This document shows, one piece after another, positions 1-7,060 of a DNA stretch of 64,000 nt. The stretch covers positions 62,001-126,000 of the forward strand of contig JAJEAH010000063.1 in NCBI GenBank assembly GCA_022824225.1. Reading direction: 5' to 3'. Made by a program: the position numbers and the translations under genes. Below the pieces are notes generated by a model. It was given only the letters and a program-made list of their open reading frames with translations, did not search any database and had not been told where the DNA came from. Every line of letters starts with the position of its first letter. Position 1 is the first letter of the stretch. Source of the DNA: Chloroflexota bacterium. Lineage in GTDB: Bacteria; Chloroflexota; UBA11872; VXOZ01.

Positions 1-380
1 CACAGCCACGAGGAAGAAGCAAAACGTACCGGCGAATTCAGCCACGAGAGCCTTGATCGATTGTTCAGTCAAGCTCTAATCACGCCTCCTGGGGCGGCGC
101 CCCACCACTACTTACCCTTGTATGGACTTTTGCCACTTGCTATTGTGCTAGGTAGTCGGCGAATGTCAAATGAGCAGCGCGGCTTGACGCAACTAGATGT
201 GTCTTGCCAAGCCCGCGCCGACCTGCGGTTAGTGCGCAGGCAAGCGCCGAAGCTGTCGTTTGCCTGTGTCACCAGTTTGATGGGCGGCTTGCAGCGCGGC
301 GCGCTCATGCGTGCCCGCTTTTCCTCGATGCCCCACCGCCGGTACAAAGCGGCCCGAAAGCCAACAGAAAGCGATCTGAC
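1..380. other. Left-edge region without a supported gene
   Basis: An open frame runs from the window edge to about 402 on the plus strand, but its product has no recognisable motif and it overlaps the start of the DUF3604 gene. A short GC-rich hairpin (GGGGCG/GCGCCCC type) lies near 90-105. It could hold the tail of a gene whose body is outside the window. No tRNA fold or promoter was convincing. Confidence 0.4.
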
Positions 381-2360
381 ATGCCATCCCAATCGGACTT
401 GAACGAGACCGGCGCCGTATCCATAGCGCCCAACCATGGCCGCGCGGGCACGTGGGGCACGTGGGTCGTGACGTACACGGCGGGCAGCCAGGGCATTGCC
501 ACCGGCGGCGGGCTGCAGGTGGCCTTGCCGGAACGCTGGCACCAGTGGTGGCGCAACTCCGGCCGGCGCGTGCAGAGCGTGGACCCCACGGCGCCGTTCT
601 ACGTCACCGCACACACCGACCGGCCCGGCGTGCGCCTGCGCTACGAGGTGCTGGACGCCACCGACGGCGAATACGCGAAGCCGTACCGCCGCAACGTCGG
701 CTACCCGGCGGGCAGCCGCTACTCGTGGACGGTGCAGGTGACGGTTGTGGAGGGCGCGCTGCAGGCGGGCGACGTGGTCAGCGTCGTGTACGGCGACATG
801 ACCCACGGCGGACGGGGTTTCACGCCGCCCCTGTGGACGGGTTCACCAGAGCGCGTGCGCGCCGCGGTGGACGCGGCGGGAGGCGGGGAGTTTGCCCTCT
901 TGCCGGAGGCGGCCCTGCCGCTGCTCAGCAATGAGCCCGGCCCGCCGGTAGAGCTCTTCATCGTGCTCGAGTCACGCACGGTGGTGGGCAAACCGGCGCG
1001 GGTCCGCATGGTGGCTCTGGACGAGTTCCAAAATGCGGTCTCGGCGCCGGAAACCGCCATTTACCTTGTCACCGAGACCGGCGCCGCCACTCTTCCCCCC
1101 AGTCCCGTCAAGCTCGGCGCAGCCGGCACGTGGGGCTGCCGCGAATTCCACGTCACGCCCACGGAGGAAGGGGCACTGCGCCTGCGCGGCACCTCCCACG
1201 ACGGTAGGCTGTATGGCCTCTCCAACCCCAGCAAGGTCCAGTCCGCTGCGACGGGCGCGGGTGGCGATTCCGGCGGCCTCTACTGGGGTGACATTCACTC
1301 CCACAGCCAGTATTCGTGGGACGGCACCGGCACGCGGGACGACCACTTCCGCTATGCGCGCTACGCCTCTTTGCTCGACATTTATTGCGCCACCGACCAC
1401 AACGACAGACGCAGCATGAGCCAGGACGACTGGCAGATGAACGTCGCTTACACTGAGAAGTGGTATGCGCCCGGGGAATTCGCCACGATTCTTGGCTATG
1501 AGGCGAGCTTTGGCGCGCCATGGGGACACCACAACGTCTACTACCGCGATGGGGAGGGCCCGCTCAACTACCAAGACGAGGAGAACCCGGAAGAAATCTG
1601 GCAACGAGGTGAGCGAGAGAACTTAGAAGGCGAGATGTTCACCATCCCCCACCATACGGGCGGATTCGCGCGGCCCGGCAGTGGTGTGAAGCATGACTGG
1701 CGCATTCACGACCAGCGATTCCGTCCCAGCATCGAGATTTACTCATCCCACGGGCTCAGCGAGGAGTACGCGCCGGACCATCCCATTTCGATGGACGTTT
1801 CCGACTTCACCTTCAACGGCCCGGGCGATCCCGGCAACTATGCCGTGGACGCATGGCTGGCCGGACTCAAGCTGGGCGTCATCGGTTCATCGGACAATCA
1901 CGGCGCGCAGCCGGGGATGGAGGGTTTCGGTACGATGGCGGTCTGGGCGCCGGAACTGACGCGTGAGGCGGCTTTTGACGCGATTCGCAACCGCCGCACC
2001 TACGGCTCCACCGGATCGCGCATCTACTTGGAACTCACGGTGAACGGGGAACCCATGGGCGGCGAGACGACCATAGCCGCCGGTCAGCCGGTGGTCGTGC
2101 AGGTAGAGGCGCTGGGCACCGGTCCCCTGCGCTGGATACACATCCTCCGCGCCGATCTCGACCAACCCGATGCAGGTTTCACTGTCGTCCACCAAGAGTG
2201 GTTCCCCGGCGCCAGCGCGCCCCTGGATTTCAGCCTGGAATGGACCGACGACAAGCCGCCGGCCCGCGCCGTCTACTACGTTCGCGTGCGCCAACGCGAC
2301 CTGGTCCACGGCCGCGTTGCCCAGGCTTGGAGCAGCCCGGTGTGGGTGACCAAGGCTTGA
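381..2360 (+). CDS. DUF3604 (PHP-like) metal-dependent hydrolase, copy 1
   Basis: A 659-residue protein of the DUF3604 family, related to PHP-type metal-dependent phosphoesterases. Residues 1-290 are beta-rich, probably Ig-like. The catalytic core then shows the metal-ligand motifs GDIHSH (303-308), ATDHN (337-341), IPHH (422-425) and SSDNHG (503-508). The last 100 residues look like another beta domain. No signal peptide is seen, so it is probably cytoplasmic. The ATG at 381 was chosen over upstream starts because the protein then aligns at its N-terminus with the paralogue at 5171-7060; the ribosome-binding site is weak. The substrate is unknown. Linkage of the paralogue to a CocE-type hydrolase suggests ester or amide breakdown, which is inference. 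The family call is firm, the reaction is not. Confidence 0.85.
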   Translation: MPSQSDLNETGAVSIAPNHGRAGTWGTWVVTYTAGSQGIATGGGLQVALPERWHQWWRNSGRRVQSVDPTAPFYVTAHTDRPGVRLRYEVLDATDGEYAKPYRRNVGYPAGSRYSWTVQVTVVEGALQAGDVVSVVYGDMTHGGRGFTPPLWTGSPERVRAAVDAAGGGEFALLPEAALPLLSNEPGPPVELFIVLESRTVVGKPARVRMVALDEFQNAVSAPETAIYLVTETGAATLPPSPVKLGAAGTWGCREFHVTPTEEGALRLRGTSHDGRLYGLSNPSKVQSAATGAGGDSGGLYWGDIHSHSQYSWDGTGTRDDHFRYARYASLLDIYCATDHNDRRSMSQDDWQMNVAYTEKWYAPGEFATILGYEASFGAPWGHHNVYYRDGEGPLNYQDEENPEEIWQRGERENLEGEMFTIPHHTGGFARPGSGVKHDWRIHDQRFRPSIEIYSSHGLSEEYAPDHPISMDVSDFTFNGPGDPGNYAVDAWLAGLKLGVIGSSDNHGAQPGMEGFGTMAVWAPELTREAAFDAIRNRRTYGSTGSRIYLELTVNGEPMGGETTIAAGQPVVVQVEALGTGPLRWIHILRADLDQPDAGFTVVHQEWFPGASAPLDFSLEWTDDKPPARAVYYVRVRQRDLVHGRVAQAWSSPVWVTKA

Positions 2361-2481
2361 ACGCACATGTCTGCGCGAATGTCCCCCGATGATTGCCTGG
2401 AGACTCTGGCACGCCACGCGGGTAGGACCAGGCTGCAAACTCGAAGGGCTACACTACGACGGTGACCGGGAGGAGGTGCTG

Positions 2482-2793
2482 GTGAGTTCCATCACAAGTC
2501 CGGACCCCCCGCTGTCCACGGATGCGGTCAAGCAAATCGCCGTGCCGATTCTCAAACTGTACGGCGCGAAACGGGCAAGTCTCTTTGGTTCAGTAGTCCA
2601 CGGTAGACTGGGACCGGAGAGCGACATCGACTTCCTGGTGGAATTGCCTGAGGGAGCAAGCCTGCTTGATCTTGCCGGCCTGGGCTTGGATCTGGAACAG
2701 GCCTTAGGTCGCAAAGTTGACGTTCTGACCTATCGCTCTCTCCATCCCCGCCTGCGCGAACGTATTCTTGCTGAGCAAGTGGCGATTCTCTAG
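2482..2793 (+). CDS. mntA: MntA-type nucleotidyltransferase antitoxin
   Basis: A 103-residue minimal nucleotidyltransferase. The motif GSX10DXD is exact: Gly36-Ser37, ten residues, then Asp48-Ile-Asp50. In the MntA/HepT family this enzyme adds AMP groups to the HepT toxin and so silences it. The GTG start at 2482 is chosen because AGGAGG lies six bases upstream at 2471-2476, giving one of the best ribosome-binding sites in the window; an earlier ATG at 2389 has no such support. The stop is four bases before the hepT ATG, the usual MntA-HepT arrangement. The antitoxin frame is intact while its toxin partner is broken. Confidence 0.85.
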   Translation: MSSITSPDPPLSTDAVKQIAVPILKLYGAKRASLFGSVVHGRLGPESDIDFLVELPEGASLLDLAGLGLDLEQALGRKVDVLTYRSLHPRLRERILAEQVAIL

Positions 2794-2797
2794 TCCT

Positions 2798-3143
2798 ATG
2801 ACTTCAGACCCCCTTGTCTTCCTACAAGACATCTTGGATAGCATTGACCTAATCGAGTGCTATACTCAGAACCTTACAGAGCCTGCGTTTCTCTCTTCGC
2901 AAGAGAAGCAAGACGCTGTCATTCGAAGACTGGAGGTCATTGGGGAAGCAACGCGCAATCTTCCCTAGGAATTCACTGACGTCCATCCTGGAGTCCCGTG
3001 GGGCCGAATCGTTGCCATGCGCAAACGTCTCGCTCATGCCTATGCCAGCGTAGACCTTAAGCTGACGTGGGCGGTCGTCGTAAACGACTTACCCCTTTCT
3101 CAAGAGAGAAGTCCTGGCTCTAGTCAAGGCTCAGGATGAGTAG
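2798..3143 (+). pseudogene. hepT: HepT-type HEPN toxin, broken by a stop and a frameshift
   Basis: The frame opens at ATG 2798 as a HEPN (DUF86) protein but meets an in-frame TAG at 2966-2968 after 56 codons. Past the stop the same frame continues with good family similarity and carries the catalytic RX4HXY motif (Arg at 3020, His at 3035, Tyr at 3041). Near 3092-3098, in a run of C and T, the frame shifts: the expected C-terminus (EVLALVKAQDE) is found in another frame ending at TAG 3141-3143. The gene therefore needs one nonsense correction and one indel to be whole. As read, it makes a 56-residue fragment without the RNase active site. Two sequencing errors would be an alternative, but two lesions in 350 bases of otherwise clean sequence favour decay. 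Confidence 0.8.
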
Positions 3144-3181
3144 TCTGGCATGCTAAGACCCTAAGCGTTTTCGCCTGCGCC

Positions 3182-3214
3182 GAGACTTGAGAGTCTCTGG
3201 CATACTGTATGCCA
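3182..3214 (+). repeat. Two adjacent perfect inverted repeats upstream of CocE hydrolase
   Basis: GAGACT-TGAG-AGTCTC (3182-3197) is followed directly by TGGCATA-CTG-TATGCCA (3198-3214). They sit 70 bases before the hydrolase start. The second is a good candidate operator or, as RNA, a small hairpin. No T-run follows, so a terminator is unlikely. Confidence 0.5.
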
Positions 3215-3284
3215 ACTAGCTGCCTTGCAACTGCCATGTCTACTAGGTTTTGCTGGCTTTCAAGTGGGAAGAAAAGGATTCTCA

Positions 3285-5174
3285 GTGACTAACGAACAGA
3301 TTTCACCGACCCAGTACAGTGTCGTGATACACAAGAACGTCATGGTGACCGCCCGAGACGGAGTTGAACTCGGAACGGATGTCTACCGCCCTGCGCTGCC
3401 AGTGGACGGCGGGCAGGGGAGCGTTGGCTTGACACAAGAGGGGCTGACAGCGGTAGAGGGACAGTTCCCCGTCATTCTGGAACGCACGCCGTATGACAAG
3501 ACGGGTCTCGGCTTGCGGCGGAAGGGACATTACTACGCCCGGCGGGGGTACGTGGTGGTGATCCAGGACGTGCGGGGGCGGTTTACGTCTGAGGGTGAGT
3601 GGTACGCCTTTGGCGACGAGGGGCCGGACGGCTATGACACCTGCGCGTGGATCGTGGAGCAGCCCTGGAGCAACGGCAAGATCGCCACCACCGGATGCAG
3701 TTATGCCGGCTGCACGCAGAGCGCGCTCGCGTCGCTGAATCCCCCCGGCTTGGCGGGCATGTTCGTCGAGGAGGGGCCGTGGAACTACCACACCGCCTCC
3801 ATGCGGCACAACGGCGCCTGCGAGATGCGCTTCATGATTTACGCCTTTCGTATGGCCACGACCAGCAAAGAGGCGCTCAGCGACCCGCGCCTGCGCCAAA
3901 GCCTGGACAGCGCCTTTGCCAACGTGGCGCAGTGGGTAGAAAACGCGCCTCTGAAGAAGGGCGTGTCGCCGCTGGCCGAATTGCCCAGCTACGAGCAGTG
4001 GCACCTGGACGTGCTCACCCACGGCGACCTGGACGAATACTGGGAGCGTCCCGGCTACGGACCGGAACTCTTCTACGACGAACACGCCGACGTGCCGACG
4101 GTCTATTTTGGCGGTTGGTACGACTCCTACGCGCGCTCGACGTGCACCAATTATGTCGAGCTAAGCGAGCGCAAGGATTCGCCGCAGACCCTCATCATGG
4201 GGCCCTTTACCCACGGCACCGGCAGCGCCGAGGTCTCCCATGCCGGCGACGTGGACTTTGGCCGCGACGCCGCGATCTACGACATGAACGAACTGCGCCT
4301 CCACTGGTTCGACCATTGGCTGAAGGGCGAGGACACCGGCGCGGCCCACACCAAGCCGGTGCAGATCTTCGTCATGGGCGGCGGCAGCGGCACGCGCAAC
4401 AGCGACGGCCGCCTGGACCACGGCGGTCGCTGGCGGGCCGAAGACGAGTGGCCCTTGGCGCGCACGCAGTGGACGCACTTCTACTTGCACGGCGACGGCG
4501 GCCTGAGCGCGGATACGCCGTCTCCCACGAAACAGGCAAAGCAAAGTTCCTTTACGTTCGACCCGGCCGACCCGGTGCCGACCATCGGCGGCAACCTGTC
4601 GGCGGGAGATCCCGTGCTCGTGGCCGGCGCGTACGACCAGCGGGGAGATGAGCGCTTCTTTGGCTATTCCGGCAGCCTGCCGCTGGCGGCCAGGCCCGAT
4701 GTGCTGGTGTTCCAGACGCCGCCACTTGAAGAAGACATCGAGGTCACCGGGCCGCTCACCGTCAAACTTTGGATCGCCTCGACGGCCGTGGACACGGATT
4801 TCACGGTCAAGCTGCTCGACGTGCATCCGCCCAACGGCGACTACCCCCAGGGCTTTGCCATGAACATCACGGACAGCATCCAGCGCGCGCGTTACCGCAA
4901 CAGCCGCGAGCAGGCCGAGATGCTCGAGCCCGGCACGCCCACGCCGCTCACCATCGAGATGTATCCCACCAGCAACGTGTTCGCCGCAGGCCACCGCATC
5001 CGGCTGGATATCTCCAGCAGCAATTTTCCCCGCTTCGATGTCAATCCCAATACCGGCGAGCCGCTGGGACGCCACACGCGGCTGGAGGAGGCGCACAACA
5101 CGGTCTACCACGAGCCGGGGCGGCCCTCCCGCATCGTGCTGCCGGTGATTCCCAAAGACTGCGACACCGCATGA
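3285..5174 (+). CDS. CocE/NonD family alpha/beta hydrolase, copy 1
   Basis: A 629-residue member of the CocE/X-Pro dipeptidyl-peptidase (S15) family, which cleaves esters or amides. The nucleophile is Ser139 in GCSYAG, the likely acid is Asp280 in GGWYDSY and the base His310 in GPFTHG. An alpha/beta-hydrolase core with helical cap is followed from about residue 400 by a jelly-roll C-terminal domain, giving the normal family layout. No signal peptide is seen. GTG 3285 is the start because AAGGA lies six bases upstream at 3274-3278. The stop overlaps the ATG of the next gene (ATGA at 5171-5174), so hydrolase and DUF3604 protein are translationally coupled and probably act on the same compound. 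The substrate cannot be read from sequence. Confidence 0.88.
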   Translation: MTNEQISPTQYSVVIHKNVMVTARDGVELGTDVYRPALPVDGGQGSVGLTQEGLTAVEGQFPVILERTPYDKTGLGLRRKGHYYARRGYVVVIQDVRGRFTSEGEWYAFGDEGPDGYDTCAWIVEQPWSNGKIATTGCSYAGCTQSALASLNPPGLAGMFVEEGPWNYHTASMRHNGACEMRFMIYAFRMATTSKEALSDPRLRQSLDSAFANVAQWVENAPLKKGVSPLAELPSYEQWHLDVLTHGDLDEYWERPGYGPELFYDEHADVPTVYFGGWYDSYARSTCTNYVELSERKDSPQTLIMGPFTHGTGSAEVSHAGDVDFGRDAAIYDMNELRLHWFDHWLKGEDTGAAHTKPVQIFVMGGGSGTRNSDGRLDHGGRWRAEDEWPLARTQWTHFYLHGDGGLSADTPSPTKQAKQSSFTFDPADPVPTIGGNLSAGDPVLVAGAYDQRGDERFFGYSGSLPLAARPDVLVFQTPPLEEDIEVTGPLTVKLWIASTAVDTDFTVKLLDVHPPNGDYPQGFAMNITDSIQRARYRNSREQAEMLEPGTPTPLTIEMYPTSNVFAAGHRIRLDISSSNFPRFDVNPNTGEPLGRHTRLEEAHNTVYHEPGRPSRIVLPVIPKDCDTA

Positions 5175-7060
5175 AGTCTGATTCAATACATGAACAGAGC
5201 GCCGGTCTCGCGCCGCCGGACTACACGGCCCGCATCGCGCCGGCCGATCCCGTCACCGTCGGTCAGTACGGCACGTGGGAGGTCGAATTCACGGTAGGCG
5301 CGCAGGGCATGGCGATCGGCGGCGGGGTGCGCATCGCGCCGCCGCATCGCGAGAAGCAGCGCTGGGACGTGGGCAACGTGGTGGCGGCTACTAATGTGCC
5401 TGGCACCAGCGTGCGGGTAGATGTCGTCAACGGCCATCCGCTCTCCTACCACCATTCGCAGTATCCGGTCATCTACGCCGTGCTGGAGGGCAAGCCGCTG
5501 TGCGGCGGAGACACGCTCACGGTCACACTTGGCCATCCGGGCAGCTACGTTTCCGGCTTTCGCCAGCCCGCACAGGCGCAGGACATAGTCACAGTAGACT
5601 CTGAATTCGACGTTGGGGTAGACATCGAGGGAAATACCGACTACAGCAATCCGGACTATCCCGTTCGCGGCGGCGGCCGCCACTTTGCTCTGCAGGCGCA
5701 ACCGAGCCTCGCCGTCCTGCCCGGCGAACCGGCGCAGCTCGGGGTCTCCGTGCCGCAGTTCGAGCCGGAAGTCGCTGCCGTTCGCGTCTACGTGCACGCC
5801 AGAGACGCCTTTGGCAACGTCTGCGCGGACTTTCAGGGCGCGCTAAAGCTGGAGGCCGTAGATAGGGCGGACGGCGACTCGCAAGCTGCTGCGACTGCGG
5901 CAACGGATGGCCGGGGTGTCGCCGAAGCCACAATTGAGATTCCGTGGCAGAAAAACGTGTACGTTGTGCGGGCGCGGGACGAGCGCAGCGGCATCATCGG
6001 CAAAAGCGCGCCGGTAGCGCCCCAGTTCCGTCCCGGCGGCTACAACATCTACTGGGGCGACGTACACAACCACACCAACCTCTCCGGCGACGGCGTGCGT
6101 GATATTGACGACGCATATTGGTATGCCCGTTACATTAGCGGCCTGGACTTCGTCGCCGTCACGGACCACGAGGGCGGCAGCGATTGGGCGCGCAGCCAGG
6201 CGTGCGCCAAGCAGTACAACACGCCGGGCGAGTTTGTCAGCTTCCTGGCATACGAATACAGCAGAGCGGGCGCATACGGTCACCGCAACGTGTACTATCT
6301 CGACGACGACATGCCGTGTCCCACGCCCGACGATCCCAACGATCTCTGGGAGCAGTTACCGCCGGGCCGCGCGCTGGTCATACCGCACCATCCCAATACG
6401 CACTCCGAGGGTGGTACCACGTTTGGCCGTTGGCAACCGACGGACTGGAGCAGGCGCCATCCCGAATTTCAGCGCCACGTTGAAATATGCCAATTGCGCG
6501 GATCTTTCGAAGTTGAGGAAATTGGCGATCCCGTCATCCTGGGCGGCAATGGGTCGTCCGCCCGCAGCGCTTTGGCCAAGGGGCTGCGCCTCGGCTTTGT
6601 GGGCGGCACCGACAACCATCGCGGCCATCCCGGCTCGCGCATGGATACCATGGGAGGCATCAACTATCGGCTGCGGCCGGTCGGCGGCATCACCGCCGTG
6701 CTCGCCCACGAGTGCACGCGGGAGGCGCTGTGGGAGGCCCTGCTGGCCCGCAGGACCTATGCCACCACCTGCGAGCGCATTTTGCTCGATTTCAGCGTCA
6801 ATGGCGTCTGCATGGGCGGCAGCGCCGCCGCGGCGTCTGATTACACCGTGCGCGTGGCCGCCATTGGCACGGGATCAATTGCGAGAATTGACGTCATCCG
6901 GGACGGCAGCGAAGTGCACACGATCCAGGGCGTTGCGGCCCATGTAGAACACGCTTGGCGCGACACGCCGGCGGCGCAACCGGGGTACTACTATGTCCGG
7001 GTGCTTCAGGCCGACGGCAACGCCGCGTGGTCAAGCCCGGTCTGGATCGAGTCCGAATAG
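5171..7060 (+). CDS. DUF3604 (PHP-like) metal-dependent hydrolase, copy 2
   Basis: A 629-residue paralogue of the protein at 381-2360. It keeps every metal-binding motif: GDVHNH (296-301), VTDHEG (330-335), IPHH (404-407) and GTDNHRG (479-485). The N-terminal beta-rich half (TYGTW-type start, GGG-rich turn) and C-terminal beta domain are shared with copy 1, but the sequences are clearly divergent, so this is an old duplication. The start overlaps the CocE stop by four bases, which fixes it and implies coupled expression. Function is unknown; a two-step pathway with the CocE hydrolase is inferred from the coupling. Confidence 0.87.
   Translation: MKSDSIHEQSAGLAPPDYTARIAPADPVTVGQYGTWEVEFTVGAQGMAIGGGVRIAPPHREKQRWDVGNVVAATNVPGTSVRVDVVNGHPLSYHHSQYPVIYAVLEGKPLCGGDTLTVTLGHPGSYVSGFRQPAQAQDIVTVDSEFDVGVDIEGNTDYSNPDYPVRGGGRHFALQAQPSLAVLPGEPAQLGVSVPQFEPEVAAVRVYVHARDAFGNVCADFQGALKLEAVDRADGDSQAAATAATDGRGVAEATIEIPWQKNVYVVRARDERSGIIGKSAPVAPQFRPGGYNIYWGDVHNHTNLSGDGVRDIDDAYWYARYISGLDFVAVTDHEGGSDWARSQACAKQYNTPGEFVSFLAYEYSRAGAYGHRNVYYLDDDMPCPTPDDPNDLWEQLPPGRALVIPHHPNTHSEGGTTFGRWQPTDWSRRHPEFQRHVEICQLRGSFEVEEIGDPVILGGNGSSARSALAKGLRLGFVGGTDNHRGHPGSRMDTMGGINYRLRPVGGITAVLAHECTREALWEALLARRTYATTCERILLDFSVNGVCMGGSAAAASDYTVRVAAIGTGSIARIDVIRDGSEVHTIQGVAAHVEHAWRDTPAAQPGYYYVRVLQADGNAAWSSPVWIESE

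What the first reader, a model, noticed from the sequence alone, without database searches (positions are those of the whole stretch)
2482..3143. MntA/HepT toxin-antitoxin pair with an intact antitoxin and a doubly broken toxin
The antitoxin keeps an exact GSX10DXD site and one of the best ribosome-binding sites here. The HepT frame has a TAG before its RX4HXY active site and a later frameshift near 3095, with the correct C-terminus readable in another frame. This looks like a toxin captured in decay, leaving a solo antitoxin or a readthrough-dependent toxin.
Basis: partly seen in the sequence, partly recalled or inferred. Interest (0 to 1): 0.6.

Follow-up and report, generated by a model that had tools for sequence, protein, structure and literature searches.

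The report
Broken toxin gene beside intact antitoxin
In a group of apparently sponge-associated Chloroflexota bacteria, a small cell-poisoning gene has been disabled or lost in every one of the four species that carry this locus, while the gene for its antidote stays intact; a wider survey of the phylum shows the poison breaking in 11 of 140 such pairs and the antidote in none, a clean case of an expected order of decay.

Summary
An intact MntA-type antitoxin (2482-2793, GSX10DXD) is followed by a HepT frame (from 2798) with TAG at 2966-2968, before its RX4HXY motif (3020-3043). A frameshift near 3095 leaves the C-terminal tail readable only in another frame (3099-3143). A sequencing slip is unlikely: the same site in four species of the genus carries intact MntA, and HepT is defective in all four (TAG plus frameshift here, a TAG at a different codon in G005, no HepT in G001 and G004). 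HepT was under strong purifying selection between the two broken copies (dN 0.22, dS saturated), so both breaks are recent and separate. In 140 HepT-MntA pairs from Chloroflexota, 11 HepT and 0 MntA carry in-frame stops (exact p = 0.001). TAG is the commonest normal stop in the window, so readthrough is unlikely. Where HepT is gone, MntA still evolves under constraint (G001-G004 dN 0.049, dS 0.41), and its tract looks exchanged between lineages. Best reading: a type VII toxin-antitoxin locus whose toxin is lost repeatedly, leaving solo antitoxins that some lineages retain. Solo antitoxins are already known, so this is a well-documented new member of a known kind.

The parts
2469..2474 (+). AGGAGG-type ribosome-binding site of mntA (approximate position)
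   Evidence: sequence: GGGAGGAGGTGCTGGTG
2482..2793 (+). mntA: intact 103-aa minimal nucleotidyltransferase (adenylyltransferase-type antitoxin), GSX10DXD intact
   Evidence: start supported by alignment with three syntenic orthologues; nearest PDB relative 1wot, E 1e-16
2798..2968 (+). hepT, N-terminal piece ending at the in-frame TAG 2966-2968 (codon 57)
   Evidence: PF01934, E 1.4e-8
2969..3094 (+). hepT, middle piece after the stop, carries RX4HXY (RKRLAHAY, 3020-3043)
   Evidence: PF01934, E 1.2e-10
3095..3143 (+). hepT tail, out of frame with the rest (frameshift near 3095; HepT-like tail readable from 3099, stop 3141-3143)
   Evidence: compare the in-frame tail of the G005 orthologue
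204..2360 (+). left syntenic marker: DUF3604-like (PHP-type) protein; its start is uncertain, homologues suggest about 378
   Evidence: (PF12228)
3225..5174 (+). right syntenic marker: S15/CocE-type hydrolase (start probably near 3286)
   Evidence: (PF02129, PF08530)

Best explanation
This is a type VII (HepT/MntA) toxin-antitoxin locus whose RNase toxin was recently inactivated by a nonsense mutation and a frameshift, while the adenylyltransferase antitoxin stayed intact. The order follows from function: losing MntA while HepT is active is harmful, whereas losing HepT is harmless, so the toxin breaks first (inferred). Across the genus the same site shows parallel outcomes: broken in two ways in two species, HepT gone in two. 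A solo MntA is kept under constraint in at least some lineages, most likely because it can still adenylylate the RX4HXY tyrosine of related incoming HepT toxins, or has another substrate (inferred, not shown).
For: Shown: intact MntA and doubly broken HepT. Syntenic G005 HepT has one TAG at codon 37, a different codon. G001 and G004 have MntA with no HepT or relic next to it, and G002 and G003 have neither gene. HepT G000-G005 dN 0.218 with dS saturated, and MntA dN 0.243, dS 1.66, so both genes were constrained until recently. In 140 HepT-MntA pairs of the phylum, 11 HepT and 0 MntA have in-frame stops, exact p 0.00098, or 0.0015 corrected for length; all 11 partner MntAs keep GSX10DXD. Solo MntA: G001-G004 dN 0.049, dS 0.406, Fisher p 5e-9; a second solo pair next to an ABC permease, G000:C16 and G004:C45, dN 0.188, dS 2.08. 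MntA neutralises HepT by adding AMPs to the RX4HXY tyrosine through GSX10DXD (PMC7641770).
Against: No reads were seen, so an error at either lesion in this one assembly cannot be excluded directly. Constraint on MntA in G000 itself may predate the break. Whether HepT was lost once or twice in G001 and G004 is unresolved: the spacers are of similar length (24-25 nt) but dissimilar in sequence. No activity has been tested for any of these proteins.
Confidence: 0.87

Rival explanations
1. Assembly or sequencing error in a metagenome-assembled genome makes an intact toxin look broken.
For: The source appears to be a MAG; reads were not available; one lesion is an indel in a C/T run.
Against: The orthologue in an independently assembled genome (G005, 9 contigs) is broken at another codon, and two more species lack HepT at the same site. 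The other 22 HepT matches of the genus have no stops, and 140 neighbouring MntA genes have none.
Confidence: 0.06
2. A readthrough-dependent toxin: the TAG is decoded (suppressor tRNA or programmed readthrough), giving a rationed HepT.
For: Both broken orthologues carry TAG; residues past the stop are still HepT-like and include RX4HXY.
Against: The two stops are at different codons. TAG is the commonest ordinary stop in the window (21 of 41 large ORFs). No tRNA gene lies in the window (the rest of the genome was not scanned for suppressors). A frameshift follows the stop here. Stops in other broken HepT genes are TAG, TGA and TAA at scattered positions.
Confidence: 0.03
3. A rival to the retention part only: the solo MntA is a neutral leftover that will decay next, and its intact state merely reflects the recency of toxin loss.
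For: In G000 and G005 the HepT breaks are recent, so an intact MntA is expected with or without selection. All 11 broken-HepT loci have an intact MntA, as recency would give.
Against: In G001 and G004, where HepT is absent, MntA differs at 24 synonymous against 11 nonsynonymous changes (dN/dS 0.12). The solo MntA pair C16/C45 shows dN/dS about 0.09 at dS about 2.
Confidence: 0.35

Closest known systems
HepT/MntA (HEPN/MNT) type VII toxin-antitoxin system, Shewanella oneidensis SO_3166/SO_3165 (PMC7641770)
   Same: Adjacent genes; PF01909 antitoxin with GSX10DXD, PF01934 toxin with RX4HXY.
   Different: HepT here is interrupted by a stop before the active site and by a frameshift; MntA scores below the NCBIfam equivalog cut-off (44.5 against 60 bits).
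Orphan/solo antitoxins (PMC2701414; K. pneumoniae PMC7192599; marine MAGs PMC12654330)
   Same: Antitoxin gene without a functional toxin beside it; anti-addiction or a new role proposed for some.
   Different: Those are mostly type II and IV. Here it is an enzymatic type VII antitoxin, with the intermediate stages (broken, absent) seen at one syntenic site.
1wot, putative minimal nucleotidyltransferase in the PDB
   Same: Matches the MntA profile over 89 residues.
   Different: Sequence relationship only; no fold comparison was run.

Membership tests
HepT/MntA type VII toxin-antitoxin | MNT-domain antitoxin (PF01909) with GSX10DXD | tested here: met
   the NCBIfam equivalog cut-off was not reached
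HepT/MntA type VII toxin-antitoxin | Adjacent HEPN toxin (PF01934) with RX4HXY in one open frame | tested here: not met
   Homology and motif present, but TAG at 2966 precedes the motif and the tail is out of frame. It is therefore a degenerate derivative of such a pair, not a working pair.
HepT/MntA type VII toxin-antitoxin | MntA adenylylates the HepT tyrosine and neutralises its RNase | not testable with these tools
   needs protein work
Solo (orphan) antitoxin | Intact antitoxin without an intact toxin nearby | tested here: met
   window, G005, G001 and G004 at synteny
Solo (orphan) antitoxin | Retained under purifying selection after toxin loss | tested here: inconclusive
   Low dN/dS in G001-G004 and C16/C45, but single or double toxin loss in G001 and G004 is unresolved; in the window the break is too recent to tell
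Anti-addiction antitoxin | Neutralises a toxin encoded elsewhere | not testable with these tools
   Closest other HepT in G000, G001 and G004 are only 30-37% identical and have an MntA beside them

The most novel reading that the evidence does not exclude
Solo MntA at this site is a selected, laterally exchanged immunity gene: its adenylyltransferase activity disarms HepT toxins brought in by mobile elements, so lineages discard the toxin and trade the antidote. The G001-G004 tract of MntA and its upstream region is clearly closer than the neighbouring host gene (synonymous p-distance 0.31 against 0.62).
Probability: 0.2. Interest if true: 0.6.

Novelty: new member of a known kind. Interest (0 to 1): 0.36.

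Why it matters
[quoted passage not shown] This locus shows stages of decay at one genomic address, and the survey puts a number on the order (toxin first, 11 to 0). If solo MntA really protects against foreign HepT, it would be an enzymatic anti-addiction gene and a direct way to test what keeps orphan antitoxins alive.

Tried and rejected
Plasmid and phage collections and viral contigs hold no relative of this MntA or locus. Genome contigs gave the three syntenic loci already known plus one distant Calditrichaeota hit. The idea that G005 shares the same TAG (first suggested) was rejected: it lies at another codon. A NucS_C-like gene beside the locus in G004 and G005 (its end also present in G001) has no relic in the window. 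No HepT relic was found beside the four solo MntA genes. The short HepT profile matches of a divergent HepT subfamily are a profile effect, not truncations. The first MntA/HepT asymmetry count compared score-ranked lists (10 of 150 against 0 listed), which is open to ranking bias; it was replaced by the paired count.

Full report
Observation. The finding is accurate. mntA runs from GTG 2482 to the stop 2791-2793 behind an AGGAGG site and encodes 103 aa with an exact GSX10DXD. hepT starts at ATG 2798. TAG at 2966-2968 interrupts it at codon 57, upstream of RKRLAHAY (RX4HXY, 3020-3043). The two halves each match the Pfam HepT-like family independently. Near 3095 the frame shifts, and a HepT-like tail is readable in another frame up to the stop at 3141-3143.

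Where it is. The window is G000:C24:62001-126000 of a 3.37-Mb, 87-contig genome. Syntenic matches in named records are Chloroflexota MAGs (SB0662_bin_44, RHO3_bin_22, CATQHC contig_2). That these series come from sponges is my own recollection of the name style, not tested. Five further genomes of the genus are held.

The same address in six species. The left marker is a DUF3604 protein; the right marker, where the contig reaches it, is an S15/CocE hydrolase. G000: MntA plus HepT with stop and frameshift. G005: MntA plus HepT with one TAG at codon 37, then a convergent NucS_C-like gene. G004: MntA alone, then the NucS_C-like gene. G001: MntA alone, then the end of a similar gene, where the contig stops. 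G002 and G003: neither gene. So MntA is intact in four of four carriers and HepT intact in none. Of 24 HepT matches in the genus only these two have stops.

Timing. Between G000 and G005, HepT has 54 synonymous against 42 nonsynonymous differences (synonymous sites saturated, dN 0.218, Fisher p 1e-18), the same regime as MntA (dN 0.243, dS 1.66). Both toxins were therefore functional for most of the time since their split, and the two breaks are recent and independent.

Is this general? In 201 Chloroflexota genomes, 10 of the 150 best-scoring PF01934 matches carry an in-frame stop (rows counted by hand), while none of the PF01909 matches listed does. Because those lists are ranked by score, I fetched the listed HepT loci and read the neighbouring MntA directly. 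Of 143 HepT matches, 140 have an adjacent MntA. 11 HepT genes and no MntA have in-frame stops (exact two-sided p 0.00098; 0.0015 if corrected for profile length). In 10 of the 11 the HepT profile is otherwise matched over nearly its whole length; the eleventh (L153, minus strand) is a fragment. The stops are TAG, TGA and TAA at scattered positions. All 11 partner MntA genes keep GSX10DXD. This is what a toxin-first order of decay predicts. The window and G005 are two of the 11; frameshifts were not scored in this count.

Is solo MntA kept? G001 and G004, both without HepT, differ at 24 synonymous and 11 nonsynonymous changes in MntA (dN 0.049, dS 0.406, Fisher p 5e-9). A second solo MntA sits before the same ABC permease gene in G000:C16 and G004:C45, with dN 0.188 at dS 2.08 and no HepT within the stretch read. 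Both point to retention. The caveat is that I cannot prove HepT left the G001-G004 line only once; the spacer behind MntA is 24-25 nt in both but dissimilar in sequence. The tract from the end of the DUF3604 gene through MntA is 82-93% identical between G001 and G004, while the DUF3604 gene is about 77% identical (synonymous p-distance 0.31 against 0.62), suggesting exchange of the MntA segment between lineages.

Mechanism. By established work on Shewanella and Thermococcus pairs (PMC7641770), MntA adds AMP to the tyrosine of RX4HXY and so silences the HepT RNase. The conserved motif implies that this MntA still can. With its own partner truncated before the active site, its remaining use would be against HepT toxins from elsewhere, or another substrate. 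The resident HepT proteins of G000, G001 and G004 are only 30-37% identical to this one and have an MntA beside them, so an incoming toxin is the likelier target. This step is inference.

Alternatives. Assembly error, readthrough and neutral leftover are weighed in the rivals. Readthrough is the weakest: TAG ends 21 of 41 large window ORFs, the stop positions differ between orthologues, and a frameshift follows.

Known or new. Solo toxins and antitoxins were counted as common in 2009 (PMC2701414), orphan antitoxins are abundant in Klebsiella (PMC7192599) and occur in marine MAGs (PMC12654330). The present case adds a type VII example with stages of decay at one address, and a paired count. It is ordinary in kind and well supported.

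Noticed in passing
G000:C46:93981-94823 (L003:1450-2292): A single 281-aa ORF fuses a HepT domain and an MntA-type nucleotidyltransferase; the HepT part reads RNHLTYGN, so the RX4HXY histidine and tyrosine are missing while the nucleotidyltransferase domain is intact. Only one of the three HepT matches of this genome (C78) then looks active.
   Followed up: partly
L049:899-1216 (G000:C16) and L047:1501-1839 (G004:C45): A second solo MntA, directly before the same ABC permease gene in two species, with strong constraint (dN 0.188, dS 2.08).
   Followed up: partly
L015:288-1412 (G005) and L036:3194-4324 (G004): A convergent gene with a weak NucS_C endonuclease match sits right behind the antitoxin locus, but is absent from the window; it may travel with the locus.
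   Followed up: partly
L153:257-638 minus strand (G058:C106): A broken, truncated HepT with an intact MntA lies close to an intact HepT-MntA pair on the other strand.
   Followed up: no
window 204-7060: Two DUF3604-like genes flank an S15/CocE-type hydrolase; the arrangement is conserved in the genus.
   Followed up: no
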